From: Roseibium sp. TrichSKD4
GTDB lineage: Bacteria; Pseudomonadota; Alphaproteobacteria; Rhizobiales; Stappiaceae
Assembly (NCBI RefSeq): GCF_000148725.1
Contig: NZ_GL476304.1
Span: 274,527-338,526, forward strand
DNA length: 64,000 nucleotides
Direction: 5' to 3'
The notes below the pieces were generated by a model that worked only from the letters and a program-made list of their open reading frames with translations, was not told where the DNA came from and searched no databases. Shown here piece by piece: positions 19,447-48,274 of this stretch (position 1 is its first letter; each line of letters opens with the position of its first letter). The translations under genes and the position numbers were made by a program.

Positions 19447-20988
19447 CTAAAAAGGGTACACACGCTCAGAATATGTCTTTTCAAGAGCGTCCCGTTTCGC
19501 GGAGCAGTGACGGACCTCTTCGGGATACAGTCTCACTCTGCCAAAACGTGGCTCCAGACTACAAAGGTCCGGCGACAGGATTTTAACGCAAGGGACATTG
19601 AGCACTGGGTGCGTTGCATCAAATTTCCAAATCGAGATGCCAGCGGCAATGTAGCTGTCAATAAGATCTTGAAACGAATACTCGGTATTCCAGTCCCCAT
19701 CGACTTCAAAATACCGCCCGCTGCCGCACAGGTCCGATAAAAGCCGATGTCTCCGGCCATATGCAACTGCGGGTGACGAGGCTCCGGATTGTTGCTCAAA
19801 CAATTTCGAAAAAGACTGCGACACCTCGCTTTGCAACATTTCCTGATAAGCGCTGCGAACCGCTTCGTGAAGCGTCAAACCAGCTGAAACCCCCATGGCA
19901 GCGCCGAATCCGTCCGGATCAGCAGACACCGCCCCGGCAACGTGCACGCTGAATTGGGTCGGGACACAAAAAAAGGCACACTGTCGTTCTCTACACTGCA
20001 AATACTGCCAGTGTTTTTCGCCTAAATTTTGGGCAATCTGTTGCGGTTGAAGGAGGTTTATCCCCAAGCGGTTGTACCAAGCCGGAGCAAAAACGTCTCG
20101 TTCAACCGCCTCGAGAAATGCTCCTTTGAATGCCTGTTCCTGCGTCTGATGGACAGCGGCACCAGACGTACTCGCGCTTCCAGATAGGCCCCACTTTTCT
20201 GCCTCACCAAATAAGCCGCACAGTGACGGGAGCTGGGCTATTTCACCGGAGTTCAGACTTTCGATTTTGATCCGTCTCGCAGAAGCCGAATTCAACGAAT
20301 CCAAGGCGTTTGCGTCCTTCCGATGCTTCCCGTCAGCTGCCAGGACCGCTTTCGACACTTGCCGCTTGCTAAACCCTAGAAACGCGCTCGCTTCCAAATC
20401 TCGCACTTTTCTTGAAACTGTATTTATCCTGTGTTCATCGCCATCTGGAGCGGTTTGAAGACTAAGTCGCTCAGCAATTTCGCCAATACAGGACAAGAAT
20501 GCCGCCGCAGTACTTTCTCCCTGCCCCCCCGCGACGATCTTAAGTGGCTGTCGGAAGCCTTCGCCGTTTGTGTCGGGCGTTTCCGACCAAATTCCCGTAC
20601 AGAAGACGATCGGACATCCGGGCAATCGAACGTTTCGCAGGCGCAAAAACCTCGGATCGAGCACCTTCGAAAACAAGTCATACGTGCGGCTGGGTAGTAG
20701 TGATGAAAAACGAGGCCCTTCGTCATCGATCACGATTAAGCCGAGCGCGACTAGGTCGTGGTAGAGACTGTTTTTGACACCCGCTTGTTTTTGAATTTTC
20801 GGTTCTGAGAAGAGCCCTCCTAGAACCGACAAACCGTCCCTCATTTTTTCATATGCCCAATCGACGCCCACCAAAAAACAACCATAAGTATCTATATTAG
20901 ACGAAATACGCAAACTGGTTGATTTAACCACCTTCAACGGATCAAAACTGAAATACGGCGCAAGTAAACACACTGCCGTCACGAACAA
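19447..20988 (-). CDS. Stand-alone YcaO-domain protein (ATP-dependent peptide backbone modification)
   Basis: Up to 513 aa. The C-terminal 350 residues show the YcaO pattern: GGQGESTAAAFLSCIGEIAERL (first ATP/Mg region), SGAAVHQTQEQAFKGAFLEAVERDVF (second, ExxERD) and GVSAGLTLHEAVRSAYQEML. The end reads VPCVKILSPDL followed by a terminal VYPF. YcaO enzymes phosphorylate amide backbones to form azolines, thioamides or amidines. The terminal PxPxP tail of classic cyclodehydratases is absent. No E1-like or flavin partner is nearby. The N-terminal 150 residues resemble no domain I know and might bind the leader. The start is uncertain: the frame opens at TTG 20988 without a clear ribosome site, and ATG 20844 would give 465 aa. 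Confidence 0.8.
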   Translation of the reverse strand: MFVTAVCLLAPYFSFDPLKVVKSTSLRISSNIDTYGCFLVGVDWAYEKMRDGLSVLGGLFSEPKIQKQAGVKNSLYHDLVALGLIVIDDEGPRFSSLLPSRTYDLFSKVLDPRFLRLRNVRLPGCPIVFCTGIWSETPDTNGEGFRQPLKIVAGGQGESTAAAFLSCIGEIAERLSLQTAPDGDEHRINTVSRKVRDLEASAFLGFSKRQVSKAVLAADGKHRKDANALDSLNSASARRIKIESLNSGEIAQLPSLCGLFGEAEKWGLSGSASTSGAAVHQTQEQAFKGAFLEAVERDVFAPAWYNRLGINLLQPQQIAQNLGEKHWQYLQCRERQCAFFCVPTQFSVHVAGAVSADPDGFGAAMGVSAGLTLHEAVRSAYQEMLQSEVSQSFSKLFEQQSGASSPAVAYGRRHRLLSDLCGSGRYFEVDGDWNTEYSFQDLIDSYIAAGISIWKFDATHPVLNVPCVKILSPDLCSLEPRFGRVRLYPEEVRHCSAKRDALEKTYSERVYPF

Positions 20989-21064
20989 AGTCGGAAGAAT
21001 AACTGCGCCTCTGGGTCACATACAGCACCCATTTCTGTATTGAAATTAAATTGGAGGTCTACAG

Positions 21065-21352
21065 ATGAGCATTTTCACTAGCAATTCATCCTTAGTCGCA
21101 GGAAAAGAATTAGCGTCTATTATCGGTTCAGACGAAACGCGCGAGAATTTCATTCAAAACCCGAAACAAGTCCTTACAAATTCGGAATTACCAAACAACC
21201 TCGTTGTGCTTGCAGATACTGCCGACACAATTCATCTGGTTGTACCGGCTCAAGTCGATGTTGATCGAATTGTCGCTAATGATGAAGCCTATTTCGAGGA
21301 ACTGGGACAATTGGCCCTAAGCGCCTGCATGTATGAAGATATTCCAGAATAG
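21065..21352 (+). CDS. Candidate modified-peptide precursor A (NHLP-like leader)
   Basis: The 95-aa protein lies divergent to the YcaO gene, with a strong ribosome site (GGAGG, 7 bases before the ATG). Residues about 24-60 resemble the nitrile-hydratase-type leader peptide family: ETRENFIQNPKQVLTNSELP, then a beta segment LVVLADTADTIHLVVPA. The C-terminal 30 residues (after VDVDRIV) would be the core. They hold a single Cys in LALSACMYED and no GG/GA cleavage motif. The same NPxxVL...LP element appears in the next gene. The call as a RiPP precursor is an inference from the leader and the YcaO neighbour. The cysteine-poor tail is unusual. Confidence 0.65.
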   Translation: MSIFTSNSSLVAGKELASIIGSDETRENFIQNPKQVLTNSELPNNLVVLADTADTIHLVVPAQVDVDRIVANDEAYFEELGQLALSACMYEDIPE

Positions 21353-21378
21353 GGCATCCGGGTCCACTCCCGTGAGCT

Positions 21379-21409
21379 GCGCCAACCAACTCCGACATCA
21401 GGTTGGCGC
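21379..21409 (+). promoter_or_regulatory. Hairpin between the two candidate precursors
   Basis: The perfect 9-bp stem GCGCCAACC/GGTTGGCGC with a 13-base loop has no T-run after it. It could stabilise or process the mRNA so that the upstream precursor is made in excess. Confidence 0.55.
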
Positions 21410-21462
21410 GGCAATCCCATTCTGATTACCGATTACCAATATCCCATAATCTGAGGGCTGAT

Positions 21463-21759
21463 ATGGCGCGTTTTCCCTATCACAAGTCAAAGGTGTCTGC
21501 GCTTGGGCGCCTTTTGGCAAAAGCAGCTACAGACCCCGCTTTTAAAGCCGAACTTATGCAGAACCCTCAAGAGGTCTTGAAAAAAGCGGCTCTTCCTGAT
21601 GTCACGCTGCAGTTATTCAATTTCAATGTCGTGGACGGCGCACAGAACACCCCGATGATCGCACTTCCTTACCGCCTGAATGAACAAAAGGTTGCGGAAT
21701 GTGACCCGGAATATCTGGCTGGAGTTGCTCGCCTTGTGCCCACAACAAACCTGTCATAA
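21463..21759 (+). CDS. Candidate modified-peptide precursor B (NHLP-like leader)
   Basis: The 98-aa protein starts at the ATG at 21463 behind GAGGG; an upstream TTG at 21403 is inside the hairpin and unlikely. FKAELMQNPQEVLKKAALPDVTLQLFN aligns by eye with precursor A (NPxxVL, LP, then a beta strand). The tails are also comparable: CDPEYLAGVARL here and NDEAYFEELGQL in A. The tail has one cysteine and ends VPTTNLS. The shared architecture supports two paralogous substrates for the divergent YcaO enzyme. It ends 16 bases before the convergent regulator gene. Confidence 0.62.
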   Translation: MARFPYHKSKVSALGRLLAKAATDPAFKAELMQNPQEVLKKAALPDVTLQLFNFNVVDGAQNTPMIALPYRLNEQKVAECDPEYLAGVARLVPTTNLS

Positions 21760-21775
21760 CTGAAACAGTCGCTGA

Positions 21776-23767
21776 TCACGCTTCACCAAGAACGGACCGG
21801 CGAACCAAACTGGCCCCGACCTGATAATTGTGCCGCACTCGAGGATCTTGGAAGATGTTAATCCGCTGATCCCAGGAGGCATCATTTATTTCCGCGAAAA
21901 GGTCGGAGGACAGCAGGTTTTCGTACTTACCTCTGTACAGCTGCAAAACACTTCGCGCTTCACTTTCTCGCCCAACACACATCAAGGCTGAAACCCGCGT
22001 TGCCAAACTGATCAGACTTCCAAGCGGCGCGCGTTCACCAAACTGAATTGCGCGTTCATAGTCGCCGGCAGCAAAATAGATGTTTGCCATATACTCATTC
22101 ACGATCCGGGGCGGAAACGTGAAGGTAGAAAGTGCCTTTTCTGCATATTTGACGGCTTCTTGATAGCGCCCAAGTGCCGCCAGTCCCTCAGCTACCGACA
22201 TGAGATTGCTCGGATCCATCGGATTAAGGCGCGATGCTTCCGAGAACGCGTTGCCAGCGTCCTCCGTTGCCCCACACAGGACAAGAGCCCATCCAAATAG
22301 CCTTTGATTGATTGACTGCCATGGATCAAGCGTGACTGCTTTTTCAGCGAGCATCACGGCCTCTTCGATCCGCGGGACGTCTGACGCGTTTTTTACCGCG
22401 TAATAAAGCAGCTGCTTCATTTCGATGGATGCCTTGCCCGCATAGGTCAAGGAAAACTGCGGACACTGGCGCTCAAGATCGTTCAATATCCGCAAGGCCT
22501 TCTCATCCGCAGTGCGGGAGAATTCCCAGAGCATGGCTTCGGCCTGACACCATTTGGCGAATGGAGCGGTGTTGCGAGGATTTCTCAGGCGATGCAGTAC
22601 TTGAGAGTGGATGCGATTCACGGAATGAAACGCCAAGGGCCGCGCCTCACAACTGGTAGACCAGTCGCTTAGATCAACCACATCATGAAAAAGGATCTTG
22701 CCGGATTGCCGATCTTCAAACTGGAGATACACTTTTTCCAGTTCGCACTCAGTGCGAAAGCGCAGAAGATAACTTCCCAATTCCCCATCATCGAGGCGCG
22801 CCAAAGCAGCAACGCCTCCCGGCTCTTCATAATCTGCCTGATAGAGATCGAAATATTGATAGGATGACAGACCGTTGACGATTTCATCGCGTAGCGCTCT
22901 GGCCTTTGCATCCCCTTTCTTCTGGACCGCAATTGATGCAATTGCGATCTTGGGAAGACGAATGACATCATCACCTTCCGGTAAGAAATTTAAGTCTTGA
23001 GACCTTTCGGACCGTGCACTCGACTGGCCCGAGGCGAGTAGCGCCGTTTGACGACTGGTTTCAATTGCTTTTCGTGCATTGGCAGCGAGACCTGACTTTT
23101 GGTTCACCTCGCGCTCGCAAGCACTTAATTGATGCTGGGCAAGCTCCATCTGGCCAGTTTCCCGATAGTATCGAAGAAGGGCTTCGTGCGCGATCTCATG
23201 TCCTGGATCTATGTCGACAACAAAGCGCGCTGCAACTTCCAAAATGACGGAATTTCCAGACCTTTCCGCACCGCTAAACAGCTCAACTAATCTTTCAACT
23301 GCTTGCCAACGAATGTTTTCCCGCTCCACAGCAAGCCAGTCGCCGAAATTCGGGTCCAGTGTATCGTACCCTTCCAGAAACGGCCCTTTCCAGAGATCAC
23401 GCGCTGTTTCCAGAGACGCACCATTTCCTTGCTGAAGCAGCTGGAACAGGGTTGGGACATCCCAATTGAGAGGTCCGGCGTGCGCGGCGAGATACGTGTG
23501 TTTGGCCTCAAGAAACGGAATACCACAGGCATCTTCGAGGAGACGAACCTGCCTCAATGCCTGCCGCAGAGACTGCGATGCCCGATCCCGGTCCGAGGCG
23601 CTCCAAAACAGGTCCGCGATTTCCTCTCTAGCCACAGGCTGGCTGTTTCGACGCAAAAGCACGGTTAAAAGCGCAAGTGCTTTCCTCGTTTTCACATGAA
23701 TCGCCTGCCCCATCTCATCAGTCAATGATGGCGCTCCCAAGCTATGAAACGTAACGTTTTTATTCAT
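21776..23767 (-). CDS. BTAD (SARP-like) regulator with TolB-like and TPR domains
   Basis: The 663-aa protein opens with an OmpR-type winged helix (about 1-100: KTRKALALLTVLLRRNSQPVAREEIADLFW, the standard start of SARP/BTAD regulators). A BTAD helical repeat domain follows (about 105-245, with GPFLEGYD and LLRYYRETGQMELAQHQLSACE). A middle segment from about 270 (IAIASIAV...RDEIVNGLSSYQYFDLY) looks like the TolB-like domain of CadC-type regulators. Several tetratricopeptide repeats run from about 440 to 610. It is convergent with the precursors and divergent from the 85-aa gene, so it is the likely regulator of the locus. The signal is unknown. Confidence 0.78.
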   Translation of the reverse strand: MNKNVTFHSLGAPSLTDEMGQAIHVKTRKALALLTVLLRRNSQPVAREEIADLFWSASDRDRASQSLRQALRQVRLLEDACGIPFLEAKHTYLAAHAGPLNWDVPTLFQLLQQGNGASLETARDLWKGPFLEGYDTLDPNFGDWLAVERENIRWQAVERLVELFSGAERSGNSVILEVAARFVVDIDPGHEIAHEALLRYYRETGQMELAQHQLSACEREVNQKSGLAANARKAIETSRQTALLASGQSSARSERSQDLNFLPEGDDVIRLPKIAIASIAVQKKGDAKARALRDEIVNGLSSYQYFDLYQADYEEPGGVAALARLDDGELGSYLLRFRTECELEKVYLQFEDRQSGKILFHDVVDLSDWSTSCEARPLAFHSVNRIHSQVLHRLRNPRNTAPFAKWCQAEAMLWEFSRTADEKALRILNDLERQCPQFSLTYAGKASIEMKQLLYYAVKNASDVPRIEEAVMLAEKAVTLDPWQSINQRLFGWALVLCGATEDAGNAFSEASRLNPMDPSNLMSVAEGLAALGRYQEAVKYAEKALSTFTFPPRIVNEYMANIYFAAGDYERAIQFGERAPLGSLISLATRVSALMCVGRESEARSVLQLYRGKYENLLSSDLFAEINDASWDQRINIFQDPRVRHNYQVGASLVRRSVLGEA

Positions 23768-23948
23768 AATTCAAGTGCCATCAATTGAGTTAAAAGAGCC
23801 AGAAAACGGCGATAATGCATGAGCCTCAATTATGCGAGAGCAGAGCCTGCAAAATATATCACGCTAATTTCACGGGGCAAAACCATGTTAGGCTTCGTAT
23901 CGTAGATCGACAGATCAATTGATTTTTTTTGGTAACGGCAGGCAACCA

Positions 23949-24206
23949 ATGTCAAATTTTTCTGACCCGACTTCATCTGACACTTTTTTGGACGAGTGCG
24001 GGAACGAATCCCTAAAGCGCATGATTTATTTCACCAAGCGGCAAGCGGAGAAGGACGGCAAGACTTTCTGCGCCTATTTTCTCGATATGGCTCTCAATGC
24101 CCTTGCGGATGACTCAGAAGAAATGAACGCGCTGGTCAAATCACGAGTAACGCCTCTTCCCTTCCCGGCAGCGCAGGCTCAAAAGCAAGCGCAGAATAAT
24201 GTTTAA
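23949..24206 (+). CDS. Small protein of unknown function divergent to the BTAD regulator
   Basis: The 85-aa soluble protein starts at the ATG at 23949 behind GGCAGG; a TTG at 23919 is less likely. It is mostly helical, with LKRMIYFTKRQAEKDGKTFCAYFLDMALNALADD in the middle and a Pro/Gln/Ala-rich tail. There is no signal peptide or known domain. The regulator gene starts 181 bases away on the other strand, and an inverted repeat (CATAATT at 23765-23771, AATTATG at 23828-23834) lies between. The strong terminator after it supports real transcription. It could be a partner or immunity factor of the YcaO locus, but nothing shows this directly. Confidence 0.6.
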   Translation: MSNFSDPTSSDTFLDECGNESLKRMIYFTKRQAEKDGKTFCAYFLDMALNALADDSEEMNALVKSRVTPLPFPAAQAQKQAQNNV

Positions 24207-24299
24207 AGCGGAACGTTCGGGGTAATGAGCATTGACCCAACTGGTGAGTGCAGCATGTCCCGAACGGAGCGCTAGCAGCGTCCTCTCCCAACTTTGACC

Positions 24300-24335
24300 A
24301 TCGTTGCGCCGCTGACGGCGTAACGATGTTTTTTT
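24300..24335 (+). terminator. Strong intrinsic terminator
   Basis: A 12-bp stem with one G-U (ATCGTTGCGCCG/CGGCGTAACGAT) and a CTGA loop is followed by a G and seven T. It closes the 85-aa gene and is the last chromosomal feature before the prophage. Confidence 0.88.
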
Positions 24336-24522
24336 GCTCAGTCTTTGCGCATGACCGAACGGGTCAGCAGATTTCGGTATTTTGGAGGTTTGGCGACCCC
24401 GGCAGGGGGGAAAAGATCATTGAATTAATTGACCTTTTTTGTCCCGCACCTTGTTTAGTGCCGCTAATTGAGGGATTGATATCACAATAGATTTTCGAAT
24501 CTATCCCGCACCCAATTTCGGC
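24336..24522. other. Probable chromosome/prophage junction region
   Basis: No gene is supported. It contains a perfect hairpin at 24487-24504 (ATAGATT, TTCG loop, AATCTAT), 18 bases beyond the methylase stop. The left attachment site must lie near here if the prophage ends at the methylase. Without the right end the core sequence cannot be defined. Confidence 0.4.
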
Positions 24523-25985: not shown

Positions 25986-28202
25986 TCAGGTGCGGATTGG
26001 TACTTCCAAAATTGGCCGCAGCGGCTCGATCTGTGTCGCATATTGACGTACGACCTGATCGTAGAGATCAGCTACACCCTTCGCTTGTACAGAGACCACC
26101 ATCGCGTAGCTCAATTTTTCAGGAGGAGCATAATTGCGCCCTTCAAGCCGAGCATTGTAGTGGATGTCGAAGCAGGGGTTGATCAAAGAACTGCCGCGTT
26201 TGCGTTTGACCGCATGAAGACAGTTTTCCCACTTCCAGGCATCGTGCCTCAATTCATCTTCCGTCGCACCCGGTAGAGACGAGCCAAAGAAGCTGTCGGA
26301 ATTGGGATGGACCTGCTCGTCGCGCGAATATTTTGTGTCGTTGGGGCGGAAAGTCACTTCCAATCCGGCTCGCGTATAGTTTCCGGGGTGATGCGGATCT
26401 GTTTGGGTCTTGTAACAGAGCGTGGCTGTAATAGAGACCATACCGCTCATTTGCGTTGACGGAACAGGAATTGCTGCACGGATATACTTGGCCGGGGATA
26501 TTTCGCCCTGGTAAACGACCCGAACCGTGTCGTCATCACAAAGGATGACGTCGTCCAAACTGCGCGCAACACGCCCCCAACCGATTTCTTTGTGATCTTG
26601 GCCACCTTCCTCACTTGTATGCACAAGGAGAGTACGGATGGCGAGATGGTTCAGGCTGCCTCCGAAGTGAGCGCGAATGCCGGCACCCAACCGCAACACA
26701 CTTGGCGTGGCGAAGGATGTGCCACCCGTCGTTGTGAGCGAAGGTATCGCGTCGGGTGCGACAACGACGAAGGGGCGACTGAACTCGCCCCCGAAATCGA
26801 CCAGATCCGGCTTCACAAGACCCGGGCTACGCCCCGGTCCCTTCGAACTGTAGAGTGCGCGTTGCCAATCCTCTCCAGGAGTATCGCAGGCACCAATTGC
26901 TAACGCGTTGACACAGTCGGACGGAACCTGAACGCGGTCCAAGCCGAGTATGGCGTCCCCTTCCCCATCGTTTCCAACTGCTATCATTGCCAGTGTGGAT
27001 ACTCTTGAAAGACGGTCGTCCAGCACGGCGGTCCAAGCGTGAACATCATCATCCTCGATTGGGAGGCAAGGGCCGAGACTCAGATTGATGAAATCATACT
27101 CTTGGCTCGACAACACCCCTTCAATCCTCTCGAGGATTTCGTACAGTTCGTGTGGGTTTTGTCCCGGCGCTTCGTCCAAGACCCGATAGTGATCAATATT
27201 TGCATAGGGGCGTGGCAAAGGTTCTTTGGTGTTGATGTGTCCAAACAACGCCGCAGATGTCACACCAACACCGTGCGACAGGTCATCTTCTGTCGCTGGG
27301 AGCATTCCGGGTAGCTCATAGGGTGTCGCCCATTGGGTCAAAGGATGGTTATCCGGTATACCACCATCAAAAATTGCGACCCGGACATCTTCTGACACGG
27401 GTCCTTCGGAGGGTAGCACCAGATCAGTTGTTGGGATCCCTGCCGAACGAATGGTCGGCCGTAGGATTCTTAAGCCGGGCATTTGCCTCAATGTTCTAAC
27501 ACCGGTAAAAAGCGCGATGTCATCTGCTCTCTCCACAGGCGCGTCGAGCTCGAGAAAGCAAAGACCTTTGGCGAAGAAACGTCGGCCGAGTTCTACTTCG
27601 ATTTCTTGGACTTGAAGATATTCCTCAAAAGCTTCAAGCATAACGCGCTCAAGCTCGTTGGCATGCAGTACAGTCTCCAGTGCCATTCGCCCTCGCTCGG
27701 GCAAAGACCCTTTGATTTTGGCGTGAGGAACTGGTGCTAAGACCTCCTCAATAGAAATAAGTGCATTCGCGCTTCCTCTATTTGCGCGCCAATTTGGAAG
27801 TTGCTGGCTCCATGAGCGAATAGCAGACCTACGGCCTTTCGCGAATAGTTCAGTCGTTACGGCTTCTTCGGGCTCCCTGCCTCGCGATCGCTTAGCTGGG
27901 GTTGCCTTCTTTGGGCGGCTACCAATCACTTCGATACCCACATCCCGCATGAGTTCATAGGGGAAAAAGGACTTTGCGATGTATTCTGGATTTAGCGTCA
28001 GTGAGATAACTGCCTCATCACCCGGGCAAGCCGCTTGAGGAAGATCATCAATGCGCGATGACGCCTCGGTGACCATTGGCGAAAGCCTGCTGCGAGCCTC
28101 GTTGAATGTGTAAGGGGGCTCCTTCGGAGCGCCTCCGCCTTTGACGACGATATTGTTAGTGAGGCGTTCACCCCGACCCAGAAGAAAATTCTGTTTGCTC
28201 AT
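25986..28202 (-). CDS. ietS: IetS-like subtilisin-family serine protease (defence/plasmid exclusion)
   Basis: The 738-aa cytosolic S8 peptidase has no signal peptide. The triad is visible as D279 (VAIFDGGIPDNHP), H310 (SHGVGVTS) and S496 (GTSFATPS), with the oxyanion Asn at about N411 (AVGNDG). Residues 1-260 form an N-terminal domain not seen in secreted subtilases, and about 200 residues of beta-rich C-terminal domain follow. Its partner, the AAA+ ATPase, is encoded 9 bases upstream. The pair matches IetA/IetS, found as a plasmid incompatibility/exclusion factor in Agrobacterium and later reported among anti-phage systems. The protease is the likely effector. Confidence 0.85.
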   Translation of the reverse strand: MSKQNFLLGRGERLTNNIVVKGGGAPKEPPYTFNEARSRLSPMVTEASSRIDDLPQAACPGDEAVISLTLNPEYIAKSFFPYELMRDVGIEVIGSRPKKATPAKRSRGREPEEAVTTELFAKGRRSAIRSWSQQLPNWRANRGSANALISIEEVLAPVPHAKIKGSLPERGRMALETVLHANELERVMLEAFEEYLQVQEIEVELGRRFFAKGLCFLELDAPVERADDIALFTGVRTLRQMPGLRILRPTIRSAGIPTTDLVLPSEGPVSEDVRVAIFDGGIPDNHPLTQWATPYELPGMLPATEDDLSHGVGVTSAALFGHINTKEPLPRPYANIDHYRVLDEAPGQNPHELYEILERIEGVLSSQEYDFINLSLGPCLPIEDDDVHAWTAVLDDRLSRVSTLAMIAVGNDGEGDAILGLDRVQVPSDCVNALAIGACDTPGEDWQRALYSSKGPGRSPGLVKPDLVDFGGEFSRPFVVVAPDAIPSLTTTGGTSFATPSVLRLGAGIRAHFGGSLNHLAIRTLLVHTSEEGGQDHKEIGWGRVARSLDDVILCDDDTVRVVYQGEISPAKYIRAAIPVPSTQMSGMVSITATLCYKTQTDPHHPGNYTRAGLEVTFRPNDTKYSRDEQVHPNSDSFFGSSLPGATEDELRHDAWKWENCLHAVKRKRGSSLINPCFDIHYNARLEGRNYAPPEKLSYAMVVSVQAKGVADLYDQVVRQYATQIEPLRPILEVPIRT

Positions 28203-28211
28203 CGCTATTGT

Positions 28212-29321
28212 TTAATCCTTTAAAACTTCATTGTTCTTCAAATGTATGCGGATCGTATCGCGCGCGACCCCCGTGATTTCATGCGCTTTTCTTTGGGTCA
28301 CCAGACCATTCCTGACTAGCCGGACCGCGATTTCAATGCGCTCCTGTTTCGAGTGATTGTCAGATGCGACGAGCTGGGAAAGGTAATGATCCAGCCCTTT
28401 GCCATTCAGTGCAGCGGAGCGGCGCGCAAGGGTGACTTCGCGTTCGATGTCGCTATAGGATCGCCCGATCAAAGAGACCGAAAGGATGTCGACCCAGGCG
28501 GACATATCCGGCGCGACCTCTTCAAGCAGCGCCCCCAAAAACGCACGTATCCCGGCTTCCTCCGGCAGAGCGAAGTCGATAGGTTGTTCGAAGCGCCGCC
28601 ATACTGCGGGATCAAGCAGATCTGAATGGTTGGTGGCTGCGATGAGTAGGCCGGACGAAGGCCAATCATCCAGCTGCTGAAGTAAAACCGTGACCAGTCG
28701 CTTTAGCTCTCCGATCTCTCCGGCATCATCGCGGCGCTTTGCGATCGCGTCCAACTCATCGAGCAGAAGAACGCAATCAACGGATTTTGCGTAATCCAGC
28801 ACATGCCTCAAATTGGATCCTGTGCGCCCGAGATAGCTGCTCATCACAGCAGACAGATCGAGGATAATGAGCGGAACCCCGAGCTCGCGTGCAACCCAGC
28901 GTGCACCTAGAGTCTTTCCGACGCCGGGAGGGCCTGTGAATAAAACCGTTCTTGTCGGCTCTAATCCTGCCTCAAGCAATGCGCCGAGGTTTTGCCTCTC
29001 GTTCACAAGGCGGGACAACGTGCTTTGGACATGCTCCGTGTAGACTGGCTCCATTTGCAGTAACGGGGTGTCCTCAACCCTCAACAGCTGGAAGCGAGAA
29101 TCAGTGTCGGTCGGCAAAGCCTTTTCCATACCCTTGCGCAAGGGCGATGCTCGCGTGGGGTTTTTGCGAAGTAGCTCTATCAAGGCACCTGAGAATTGCT
29201 TATTCAGACTGCGGCGCTTCGCTATTCGATGCAGATACGTCAGAACGTCTTGAGTGCGCCCTGACAGCGCCACCCTCGCAAGGTGGACGAAATCCTTTTC
29301 GATTTCATCATTATCTGCCAT
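28212..29321 (-). CDS. ietA: IetA-like AAA+ ATPase
   Basis: The 369-aa ATPase has Walker A GPPGVGKT (130-137), Walker B LLLDELD (about 185-191), sensor-1 ATNH (about 229-232) and a WRRFE arginine-finger segment. The N-terminal 100 residues are helical. The last 40 (LVTQRKAHEITGVARDTIRIHLK) look like a helix-turn-helix, so the ATPase may contact DNA. It is encoded just upstream of the subtilase, in the order of the IetAS system. It probably senses the invader or presents protein to the protease. This mechanism is inference. Confidence 0.85.
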   Translation of the reverse strand: MADNDEIEKDFVHLARVALSGRTQDVLTYLHRIAKRRSLNKQFSGALIELLRKNPTRASPLRKGMEKALPTDTDSRFQLLRVEDTPLLQMEPVYTEHVQSTLSRLVNERQNLGALLEAGLEPTRTVLFTGPPGVGKTLGARWVARELGVPLIILDLSAVMSSYLGRTGSNLRHVLDYAKSVDCVLLLDELDAIAKRRDDAGEIGELKRLVTVLLQQLDDWPSSGLLIAATNHSDLLDPAVWRRFEQPIDFALPEEAGIRAFLGALLEEVAPDMSAWVDILSVSLIGRSYSDIEREVTLARRSAALNGKGLDHYLSQLVASDNHSKQERIEIAVRLVRNGLVTQRKAHEITGVARDTIRIHLKNNEVLKD

Positions 29322-46531: not shown

Positions 46532-46993
46532 TCATCTTTCACCTCGCGGGATACCCCGTCCTTCAGGTCGGGGAGGAAAGCGAGTGCGGCCTTCGGCCGC
46601 TTCTCTTTGAGATTTGACATATTTGGCGATGACCGATAGCGGTGCGCCTCCGCAGCTTGCTGCGAAATATGCGGGCGACCAGAGGACGCCTTTATGGTAA
46701 CGACCAGTAATTTCGGGCCTGTACTCTCTCAAAGTTCTACTTGAGACGCCTTTCAGTCTGTTGACCAGCTTTGAAAGCGCTATTTTGGGTGGGTAATGGA
46801 CAAGTAGATGCACATGATCGTCTTCCCCATCACATTCGACAAGTTTGGCTTCGAATTCGGTACATACTTTTGCAAAGATATGCTTCAGGTCTTGAATTGC
46901 CGGTTCTGATAAGACGTTGCGTCTGTATTTCGTGACAAAGACCAAATGGACGTGCAGAAGATAAACGACATGCCGACCAGTTCTGTAATCCAT
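46532..46993 (-). CDS. tnpA: IS200/IS605 family transposase TnpA (Y1 HUH)
   Basis: The 153-aa transposase has the HUH motif HVHLLVHYPP (H60 and H62) and catalytic tyrosine Y125 in IAKYVKSQ. The preceding WSPAYFAASCGG segment is characteristic. It catalyses single-strand peel-and-paste transposition. The start is the ATG at 46993; the frame runs open further to 47956 but that is read-through. Its C terminus (PRPEGRGIPRG) is translated from the left-end hairpin. Confidence 0.9.
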   Translation of the reverse strand: MDYRTGRHVVYLLHVHLVFVTKYRRNVLSEPAIQDLKHIFAKVCTEFEAKLVECDGEDDHVHLLVHYPPKIALSKLVNRLKGVSSRTLREYRPEITGRYHKGVLWSPAYFAASCGGAPLSVIAKYVKSQREAAEGRTRFPPRPEGRGIPRGER

Positions 46994-47029
46994 GTTGTTG
47001 CCTTTGGGAGCCAATGTTAGGGTCCGAGC

Positions 47030-48274
47030 ATGATTCAGCGCGGCTATCGTTATAAATTGGGCCCTACACCAGAGCAGGAAGATTTGCTTGCCCAGTTTGC
47101 TGGCGTGTGTCGTCTGATTTACAATATCGCCTTGGAGCAACGCCGCGATCATTGGCAGAGGTTTAGAAGTAGAACCGGCCAGAATATCAGCTATCCGTCT
47201 CAGGCTCGCGAATTGACCCTGCTTCGTGACGAGTTTGACTGGATTGCTGCAGTTTCCCAAACCTGCCAACAACAGACCCTGAGGGATTTGGACCGGGCTT
47301 ACCAGAACTGGTTCAAAGGCATTGCCAAATACCCAACCCCAAGGAAAAAGGGGCGTAACGATACGTTCCGCTATCAAGGCCGCGAAGTTCAAACCCGCAA
47401 GTTGAATGGCAAATGGTCCGAAGTTCGTTTGCCCAAGATCGGATGGGTTGGGTATCGCGATACTCGTGCGTTGCGAGGCAAGATCAACAATGCGACGATC
47501 AGCCTTGACGCCAAGGGCTGGCATATATCTTTTGCTGTTGCGATTGAGCACGAAGCGCCGGCTAATATTGCACCGTCTGTTGGTGTCGACCGTGGCGTAG
47601 CAAACACCCTTGCGCTTTCGACCGGTGAACGACTTTGTGTCCCTGAAAGACTGATCAAGTTGGAGAAGCGGCAGAGAAGAGCGCAGAAGATGCTGTCCCG
47701 CCGTAAGCGCGGGTCGAGGCGATATGCCAAGGCACGGAAACGTGTTGCTACGCTGAGCGCATTGCGTTCGCGCATACGCAAGGACTGGCATCACAGGGCC
47801 AGCCTTGATCTGTCCCGCCGATTTGGAACTGTGGTTCTTGAGGATCTCAAGACCAGAAACATGACAGCTAGCGCAAAAGGAAGTGCTGACGAACCGGGGC
47901 GTATGGTACGCCAAAAGGCGGGACTTAACAGGTCTATCCTGAACCAGGGCTGGCATATCTTCGAAACCCTACTTGAGTACAAATTGGAAGAGCGGGGTGG
48001 GTATTTGTGTAAGGTGCCTGCCCATTACACGTCGCAGACCTGCGCGGAATGTGGAACCGTCGATAGGGAAAGCCGTCAGAGCCAAGCGTCTTTCTCTTGT
48101 AAACATTGCGGACACACCGACCATGCAGACACAAATGCTGCGAAGGTAATTTTGCGTCGGAACACGGCGTCTATGGACATGGAGGAAGGGCATTGGCTCT
48201 CCTGTGAAGTGTCAACTCGAAAGAGCCGTAAGGCTCTCGAAAATCCCCCTCCTTCAGGTGGGGGAAGATGTTAA
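47030..48274 (+). CDS. tnpB: TnpB RNA-guided nuclease (IS605 OrfB)
   Basis: The 414-aa TnpB has an intact RuvC-type core: D187 (GVDRGVANT), E271 (VVLEDLKTRN) and D367 (HADTNAA), with a zinc ribbon C338, C341, C357 and C360. The N terminus MIQRGYRYKLGPTPEQEDLLAQFAGVCR is the usual start. It cuts DNA guided by the element's omegaRNA and the transposon-adjacent motif. TnpA is divergent, 36 bases away. The frame runs to a stop inside the right-end hairpin (ENPPPSGGG), as is usual. It looks functional. Confidence 0.92.
   Translation: MIQRGYRYKLGPTPEQEDLLAQFAGVCRLIYNIALEQRRDHWQRFRSRTGQNISYPSQARELTLLRDEFDWIAAVSQTCQQQTLRDLDRAYQNWFKGIAKYPTPRKKGRNDTFRYQGREVQTRKLNGKWSEVRLPKIGWVGYRDTRALRGKINNATISLDAKGWHISFAVAIEHEAPANIAPSVGVDRGVANTLALSTGERLCVPERLIKLEKRQRRAQKMLSRRKRGSRRYAKARKRVATLSALRSRIRKDWHHRASLDLSRRFGTVVLEDLKTRNMTASAKGSADEPGRMVRQKAGLNRSILNQGWHIFETLLEYKLEERGGYLCKVPAHYTSQTCAECGTVDRESRQSQASFSCKHCGHTDHADTNAAKVILRRNTASMDMEEGHWLSCEVSTRKSRKALENPPPSGGGRC
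48120..48270 (+). ncRNA. Probable omegaRNA (TnpB guide RNA)
   Basis: By family precedent the guide RNA overlaps the 3' end of tnpB and the right end of the element, with the hairpin at 48245-48264 inside its scaffold. The guide portion would be read from the DNA beyond the right end. The limits given are approximate. Confidence 0.5.

What the first reader, a model, noticed from the sequence alone, without database searches (positions are those of the whole stretch)
19447..24206. Compact YcaO locus with two NHLP-like peptides and a BTAD/TPR regulator, without other maturation genes
Seen: a YcaO protein divergent from two small genes whose products share NPxxVL...LP leaders and similar tails, then a 663-aa winged-helix/BTAD/TolB-like/TPR regulator, then a divergent 85-aa gene with its own strong terminator. 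Known: YcaO proteins modify peptide backbones, and NHLP leaders belong to RiPP precursors. Inference: this is a small peptide-modification system. Unusual points are the single stand-alone YcaO (no E1-like partner, no PxPxP tail), cores with only one cysteine each, and no transporter or protease. The products may be modified proteins with an internal role, not exported antibiotics.
Basis: partly seen in the sequence, partly recalled or inferred. Interest (0 to 1): 0.78.

Follow-up and report, generated by a model that had tools for sequence, protein, structure and literature searches.

The report
Self-regulating YcaO peptide-modification module in Stappiaceae
A group of marine bacteria carries, at one fixed chromosomal place, a small set of genes in which a peptide-modifying enzyme, two related small proteins, a DNA-binding regulator and an unknown small protein are inherited together, which suggests an internal modified-protein circuit and not an exported antibiotic.

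Summary
The finding is real. A partner-free YcaO (19447-20844), two paralogous NHLP-type proteins A (21065-21352) and B (21463-21759), a SARP-like wHTH/BTAD/TPR regulator (21776-23767) and an 85-aa protein (23949-24206) keep the same order and orientation in 46 of 46 fetched loci; 48 of 87 family genomes have the orthologous YcaO. A one-peptide form occurs in 7 of 10 genomes of a second family and one further genome. New here: an 11-bp direct repeat, CGTGANA-n4-CGTGATA, in the regulator/85-aa intergenic region of 47 of 47 loci, exactly once in 15 of 18 whole genomes; its form is that of SARP operators. A has one invariant Cys; B's Cys is private to the window. The YcaO tail (window RVYPF; RPFPF in 26 of 32 rows) aligns with TruD's end. 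No E1-like partner in 6 of 7 genomes; TfuA absent from 12 of 15. Best reading: YcaO modifies A at Cys88 and the self-controlling regulator reads A/B. Chemistry and sensing are inferred. The prophage to the right is a neighbour, in tRNA-Arg.

The parts
19447..20844 (-). Stand-alone YcaO, 465 aa from ATG 20844 (frame open to 20988); TOMM-type YcaO domain, tail RVYPF (RPFPF in most relatives)
   Evidence: Pfam YcaO 3e-29; 32-row profile aligns to TruD 373-781, E 1.3e-30, to the last residue; orthologues in 48 of 87 family genomes
20845..21064 (.). Divergent YcaO/A intergenic region, 220 bp
   Evidence: sequence; the 11-bp repeat does not occur here
21065..21352 (+). Protein A, 95 aa, NHLP-type, conserved C-terminal half with one invariant Cys (Cys88)
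   Evidence: alignment of 38 rows; combined profile hits NHase alpha and 8tb1
21463..21759 (+). Protein B, 98 aa, paralogue of A (MARFP...); most conserved at its N-terminus, no conserved Cys
   Evidence: NHLP 1.2e-6; hhalign with A, E 1.8e-14; Cys count
21776..23767 (-). Regulator, 663 aa: Trans_reg_C-like wHTH, BTAD, TPR
   Evidence: Pfam; homologue in 46 of 46 loci
23857..23874 (-). Operator-like 11-bp direct repeat CGTGAAA-TTAG-CGTGATA
   Evidence: 47 of 47 loci; only copy in window, 0 in 100 shuffles; exactly one in 15 of 18 genomes
23853..23880 (-). Sigma70-like promoter TTGCCC-16-TATATT; the repeat covers its spacer and two bases of the second hexamer
   Evidence: 1 found against a shuffle mean of 3.8, so no evidence by itself
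23949..24206 (+). 85-aa protein (s85), Cys41 invariant in 20 rows
   Evidence: 46 of 46 loci; alignment; present in 12 of 12 genomes with the locus, 0 of 6 family genomes without
24299..24328 (+). Terminator-like stem-loop, 13 pairs, T run
   Evidence: 3 found in the region, shuffle mean 6.7; fold z -4.1
24389..24406 (+). 3' end of tRNA-Arg(TCT), probable prophage attachment core and right limit of the host locus
   Evidence: single exact match in window; tRNA-Arg after s85 in 5 of 8 relatives scanned, sequence in L115

Best explanation
A chromosomal, self-regulating modified-protein module. Shown: five genes kept as one unit; A and B homologous to each other and to nitrile-hydratase-type leader proteins; a YcaO of the TOMM cyclodehydratase type without an E1-like or TfuA partner at the locus; a conserved 11-bp direct repeat of SARP-operator form upstream of the regulator gene. 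Inferred: the folded NHLP part of A docks directly on YcaO, with B as a Cys-less partner or competitor; YcaO uses ATP to activate the backbone amide at the invariant Cys88 (ALxxCxY), most simply to form a single thiazoline; the modified A, or its short C-terminal piece, stays in the cell and is bound by the middle/TPR part of the BTAD regulator, which controls its own promoter and perhaps that of the 85-aa protein through the repeat.
For: Same order in 46 of 46 loci while the set diverges faster than its flanks (median identity to the window: YcaO 34, A 48, B 44, BTAD 41, s85 54, versus 56-79% for six flank genes). YcaO residues G121-E122..E125-R126 and E245..E248-R249-D250 invariant; TruD/LynD-like domain and tail. 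Single-peptide form in other Rhizobiales keeps the Cys (..LGTMAVLGC.RP and alike, invariant in 8 rows) and a related 11-bp repeat in 6 of 8 loci. A's second half is its most conserved part. SARP operators are heptamer direct repeats, classically 11-bp units (PMC10972967, passages). NHLP-YcaO engagement is known for MprE7/MprC (PMC12455567, passages). Distance residuals after three flank controls: A C-half with BTAD TPR part 0.28, B with TPR part 0.37; CAP control with BTAD parts and YcaO at most 0.07 (32 loci). A second YcaO-BTAD form has another small protein ending in a D-Y-..-C motif.
Against: No chemistry tested. The covariation signal is modest and post hoc; with only two flanks removed a false target (ArnT) gave 0.28-0.56 with everything, so leftover phylogeny is not excluded; A's N-half with YcaO fell to 0.07, while A's N-half with the regulator's DNA-binding part kept 0.27, which my model does not predict; some CAP controls were nominally significant before ranking. 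The repeat is seen only at the regulator's own promoter, so no output genes are known, and no such repeat was found in 12 type II loci. No RRE-like domain could be shown: the YcaO and A models were poor (pLDDT 37 and 53). The TPR part was not compared with known peptide receptors.
Confidence: 0.42

Rival explanations
1. A and B are working proteins (for example a heterodimer) of which A needs one backbone modification at Cys88, as McrA needs its thioamide; the regulator only adjusts supply and senses something else.
For: The second half of A, not its start, is most conserved; fixed chromosomal place; no export or protease gene seen in the window's set; precedent of a YcaO acting on a large protein (McrA, recalled).
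Against: A is short and its N-terminal part varies; residual covariation of A's second half and B with the TPR part, although modest.
Confidence: 0.27
2. An ordinary secreted NHLP-type RiPP (bacteriocin) whose export and protease genes lie elsewhere, with A and B a two-peptide product like the Burkholderia NHLP pairs.
For: Tandem NHLP pairs with one member ending in Cys or Cys-Cys are described for Burkholderia (PMC2887384, passages); NHLP profile hits.
Against: No fused cyclodehydratase: no TIGR03882 in 6 of 7 genomes; no Gly-Gly just before the conserved tail, by eye; C-terminal segment conserved and not hypervariable. Export genes elsewhere in the genomes were not searched.
Confidence: 0.2
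3. The YcaO no longer modifies peptides and acts as a binding or regulatory protein of the BTAD regulator.
For: Fast divergence (mean pairwise distance 0.58); no partner protein found.
Against: Motifs that hold ATP/Mg in YcaO enzymes, as recalled, are invariant over 32 rows, and the tail is kept.
Confidence: 0.07

Closest known systems
NHLP-type TOMM clusters with fused cyclodehydratase (TIGR03793 with TIGR03882); MprE/MprC, NstC/NstD
   Same: NHLP-type substrate with structured leader; YcaO domain of the same clan with a homologous tail
   Different: Here YcaO is stand-alone, the substrate's C-terminal segment is conserved with one Cys, and no C domain, transporter or protease is seen in the set
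NHLP-Burk tandem pairs (TIGR03795, Haft 2010)
   Same: Tandem NHLP pair, one member with a Cys at or near the C-terminus
   Different: No TIGR03795 hit among the rows of A1, A2, A5; no TIGR03882 partner in 6 of 7 genomes
Stand-alone YcaO proteins of bottromycin clusters
   Same: YcaO without a C protein (PMC4603692, passages)
   Different: Other precursor type; bottromycin clusters have further enzymes, none seen here
SARP/BTAD regulators (AfsR, PimR type)
   Same: BTAD and TPR with a wHTH; heptamer direct repeat with 4-nt spacer
   Different: No NB-ARC hit in Pfam; tied to one locus in Alphaproteobacteria, about one repeat per genome

Membership tests
YcaO (PF02624) | Match above Pfam gathering score, conserved E-rich motifs kept | tested here: met
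   102.8 bits vs 25.7; invariant motifs over 32 rows; their ATP role is recalled
TOMM cyclodehydratase pair (C+D) | E1-like/cyclodehydratase partner TIGR03882, fused or in the genome | tested here: not met
   absent in 6 of 7 genomes; G114 has it beside another YcaO. TIGR03603 not tested; the window's own genome is not held
TIGR03604 SagD subfamily | Score above curated cut-off | tested here: not met
   84.8 bits vs 219.25
TfuA-dependent thioamidation | TfuA gene with the YcaO | tested here: not met
   TfuA in 3 of 15 genomes (G003, G039, G188), each beside another YcaO
NHLP precursor (TIGR03793) | Score above curated cut-off | tested here: not met
   A 16.3, B 28.3 bits vs 50.9
NHLP / nitrile hydratase alpha clan | Profile homology to NHLP or NHase alpha structures | tested here: met
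   1v29 8.3e-9, 8tb1 3.1e-6 with a 20-row profile of A, B and single-peptide relatives
NHLP RiPP precursor | Hypervariable core | tested here: not met
   second half of A is its conserved part
NHLP RiPP precursor | Leader removed by a protease | not testable with these tools
   needs peptidomics
SARP-type regulator | wHTH plus BTAD | tested here: met
   BTAD 25.0 bits over cut-off 22.1; Trans_reg_C 21.6, under its cut-off 26.2
SARP-type regulator | Binds heptamer direct repeats | not testable with these tools
   repeat of that form present in 47 of 47 loci; binding needs EMSA
YcaO product chemistry | -18 Da (azoline) or +16 Da (thioamide) on the substrate | not testable with these tools
   needs mass spectrometry

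The most novel reading that the evidence does not exclude
A peptide-signalling circuit of a new kind in Gram-negative bacteria: a partner-free YcaO writes one backbone modification near the C-terminus of a dedicated NHLP-type protein, and a SARP-like BTAD/TPR transcription factor reads that modified end inside the cell. The YcaO-BTAD pairing recurs with a second, unrelated-looking small protein (..RVADYTIxVC-T), so it may be a general design.
Probability: 0.28. Interest if true: 0.86.

Novelty: new variant of a known kind. Interest (0 to 1): 0.66.

Why it matters
YcaO enzymes are known mostly from antibiotics and from methanogen MCR (recalled). An export-free YcaO unit kept at one chromosomal place with its own SARP-like operator would point to a regulatory or structural use of backbone modification in common marine bacteria (Roseibium, Pannonibacter). 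It gives a compact, cultivable test case: three proteins, one candidate Cys, one predicted operator, one expected mass change.

Tried and rejected
Prophage cargo: rejected. The prophage begins at the tRNA-Arg core 24389-24406, the locus lies at the same place in 46 relatives, and viral-contig scans with the YcaO, its alignment and the A alignment gave no relative; the phage collection had no near match to 24200-49000.

Defence system: no PADLOC hit at 0.001 for the five window proteins and one type II protein.

PraR operator: G001 has a second exact copy of its repeat about 50 bp before an XRE-type gene beside an lnt-like gene (names by eye). Published PraR sites are CAAC-N5-GTTG (PMC5527310, passages) and TTGCAA (PMC4149787, passages), not CGTGA repeats; a TTGcaG does stand just before the repeat in the 47-locus consensus, so I cannot exclude overlap. 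Extra repeats genome-wide (5 in 18 genomes) are near the reversed-pattern control (3 in 18).

Structure route: models of YcaO (pLDDT 36.8) and A (53.0) from three-row alignments were too poor for a fold search, which I did not run.

First genome-contig scan with the YcaO protein found none; the second, with MetC, gave the relatives. Plasmid searches gave one weak YcaO relative with the window protein and six with L194's.

Papers: searches YcaO+NHLP (10 papers), YcaO+BTAD (1, where BTAD is a DOI string), YcaO with Roseibium names (115 at two terms, 15 listed, none with YcaO), YcaO+tetratricopeptide+precursor peptide+alphaproteobacteria (0), nitrile hydratase+leader peptide+YcaO (22, 12 listed), YcaO+pheromone+quorum sensing (104, 10 listed) listed no paper that describes this set by title or abstract start; most listed papers were not opened, and most subscription papers are not held.
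Full report
What is in the window. The YcaO gene (19447-20844, minus; frame open to 20988) is divergent from A (21065-21352) and B (21463-21759), B is convergent with the regulator gene (21776-23767, minus), and the regulator is divergent from the 85-aa gene s85 (23949-24206). Pfam finds YcaO (3e-29), BTAD (2.7e-5), Trans_reg_C (2.3e-4, under cut-off) and TPR units. NCBIfam finds NHLP weakly in A (0.0063) and B (1.2e-6), both under the curated cut-off. A terminator-like stem with a T run follows s85 (24299-24328).

Where it comes from. No whole genome is held for the window. Seven genomes were tested first: YcaO orthologues in 4 of 7 (the Roseibium, Labrenzia and Pannonibacter ones; none in two Cohaesibacter and one Paramesorhizobium).

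Conservation of the set. In 87 genomes of the family, 56 have a YcaO match at 1e-6; 48 of these are close orthologues (E 8.6e-19 or better) and 8 have only a distant form. I fetched 46 of the 48 orthologous loci; all 46 carry CAP - YcaO - A - B - regulator - s85 in the same order and orientation as the window, with ArnT, PAP2 and GT2 beyond (PDE found in 43, MetC in 44). Median identity to the window: YcaO 34, A 48, B 44, regulator 41, s85 54, against PDE 56, CAP 62, ArnT 65, PAP2 68, MetC 69, GT2 79. The fixed place argues for vertical inheritance; no tree was built. The set diverges faster than its surroundings.

A and B. A (38 rows) has invariant A50 D51 D54 H57 P61 D65 D73 Y76 G81 A84 L85 C88. 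B (37 rows) has invariant R3 F4 P5 L14 G15 A21 P35 L51 F54 P69 Y84 and no Cys. They are paralogues (hhalign E 1.8e-14). Information per column is highest in A's second half (3.0-3.7 bits per ten-residue block from residue 51, 1.9-3.0 before) and in B's first 20 residues. The window B Cys has no counterpart in 46 homologues; 14 of 47 B rows have some Cys elsewhere or here; A has exactly one Cys in 45 of 47. A combined 20-row profile finds nitrile hydratase alpha chains (8e-9) and the NHLP structure 8tb1 (3e-6) among solved structures.

YcaO. The 32-row profile aligns positions 54-459 with TruD 373-781 (E 1.3e-30) and with LynD, to the last residue. The tail is RPFPF in 26 of 32 rows and RVYPF in the window; in the second family 6 of 8 end in NPxPFVI, and long YcaO proteins of other Alphaproteobacteria end in forms such as LNPVPVIA. 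No TIGR03882 partner in 6 of 7 genomes; the seventh, G114, has it beside another YcaO. G001, G004 and G053 have this YcaO as their only one. TfuA is absent from 12 of 15 genomes and present in G003, G039 and G188 beside another YcaO.

Second family and second form. An order-wide sample (397 genomes) gave 19 hits to the A profile. Eight of the ten outside the family hold a single A/B-like peptide between YcaO and regulator in the same orientation, seven ending ..VLGC.(R/K)P.. and one ..VRGCR; an s85-like frame was found in 6 of these 8, some at weak E-values. In one small family 7 of 10 genomes have it. In a class-wide sample of 385 genomes the combined profile matched 30, but only the query genome strongly (2.3e-38, next best 7e-10; the weaker ones were not examined), so the set looks narrow. 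Distant YcaOs in the first family (10 loci) sit directly before a BTAD regulator in 10 of 10, and in 9 of 10 a convergent 122-152 aa protein ends in a motif such as RVADYTIAVC-T (in L166 RLADYCIDLC-M). Its profile matches 2 of 385 genomes class-wide (L288, L289), and L292 was found by eye. Among 57 class-wide YcaO regions, 10 hold a BTAD-like frame, 5 of them next to the YcaO (L282, L283, L288, L289, L292). Near two of the first-family type II loci an animal haem peroxidase gene is found.

Operator. In upstream stretches of 47 loci, CGTGATA is found before the regulator in 46. The full repeat CGTGANA-n4-CGTGANA is in 47 of 47 loci, with 3 further copies; with A or T at the free places there are 48 matches in 964,344 bases versus 0.05 in shuffles, and the repeats of all 46 relatives are on the regulator's strand, median 103 bp before the start I used. 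In 18 whole genomes there are 23 matches, 18 at this locus and 5 elsewhere (G001 one, G014 two, G075 two), against 3 for the reversed pattern. In 6 of 8 second-family loci an 11-bp repeat such as CGTGATT-TCAT-CGTGAA lies upstream of the regulator; none was seen in 12 type II loci. The pattern was found in the data and then tested on whole genomes. In the window the repeat covers the spacer of a TTGCCC-16-TATATT promoter-like site, which would fit self-repression, an inference.

s85. A 20-row profile finds it in 12 of 12 genomes with the locus (G062 has a second, weaker match) and in 0 of 6 family genomes without a YcaO match. It is a member of the unit, of unknown role.

Covariation. On 41 loci, after removal of flank distance (GT2, ArnT, PAP2), A and regulator keep 0.42, B and regulator 0.36, YcaO and B 0.34, A and B 0.24, YcaO and A 0.23, CAP controls 0.06-0.19, three of these nominally significant. 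Split by part, A's C half and B follow the regulator's middle and TPR parts (0.32-0.36; 0.30-0.47), not its DNA-binding part (0.09; 0.02); A's N half follows the DNA-binding part (0.32) and YcaO (0.24). With ranks and 32 de-replicated loci the values are 0.28 and 0.37 for the TPR part, CAP controls -0.03 to 0.11; A's N half with YcaO falls to 0.07 and with the DNA-binding part stays at 0.27, which my model does not predict. When only two flanks are removed, ArnT as a false target still gives 0.28-0.56 with every gene, so leftover phylogeny is a real concern. I treat this as a hint.

Right border. The window keeps TTTGGCGACCCCGGCAGG at 24389-24406, the 3' end of the tRNA-Arg(TCT) found after s85 in 5 of 8 relatives scanned (sequence in L115); phage-like genes, judged by eye, follow to the window's end. 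The prophage is a neighbour, not part of the system.

Judgement. What is added is its conservation, its fifth gene, the operator, the corrections on tail and Cys, and a second YcaO-BTAD form. I file it as a new variant of the YcaO/NHLP kind. The peptide-sensing reading is attractive but rests on architecture, operator form and modest covariation.

Noticed in passing
window 24389-64000: Prophage probably inserted in the 3' end of tRNA-Arg(TCT) right beside s85; only one end lies in the window. By eye it carries a subtilase-like and an AAA-like gene (25986-29321).
   Followed up: partly
L159-L168, L288, L289, L292: Second YcaO-BTAD form with a convergent 122-157 aa protein ending in a D-Y-..-C motif; no Pfam match for the three tested.
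   Followed up: partly
L166:3737-5503, L168:12932-14653: Animal haem peroxidase genes (PF03098) near two type II YcaO-BTAD loci; a Tyr and a Cys lie in the conserved C-terminal motif there.
   Followed up: no
L282, L283: YcaO with a 240-aa TfuA-like gene, a 136-aa protein and a BTAD regulator in one block, possibly a third form; the TfuA label is by eye.
   Followed up: no
L351 1501-1518: G001 has an exact second copy of its 18-bp repeat about 50 bp before an XRE-type gene beside an lnt-like gene.
   Followed up: partly
upstream of A in the 47 loci: AATTGCA occurs in 29 of 47 stretches before A, close to a published PraR core TTGCAA; the window was not among those checked by eye.
   Followed up: no
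L001 (plasmid CP023455.1) 5036-8780: A Rhodobacteraceae plasmid carries a YcaO gene divergent from a BTAD regulator gene.
   Followed up: no
window 46532-48274: TnpB-like and TnpA-like frames of an IS200/IS605-type element inside the prophage, judged by eye.
   Followed up: no
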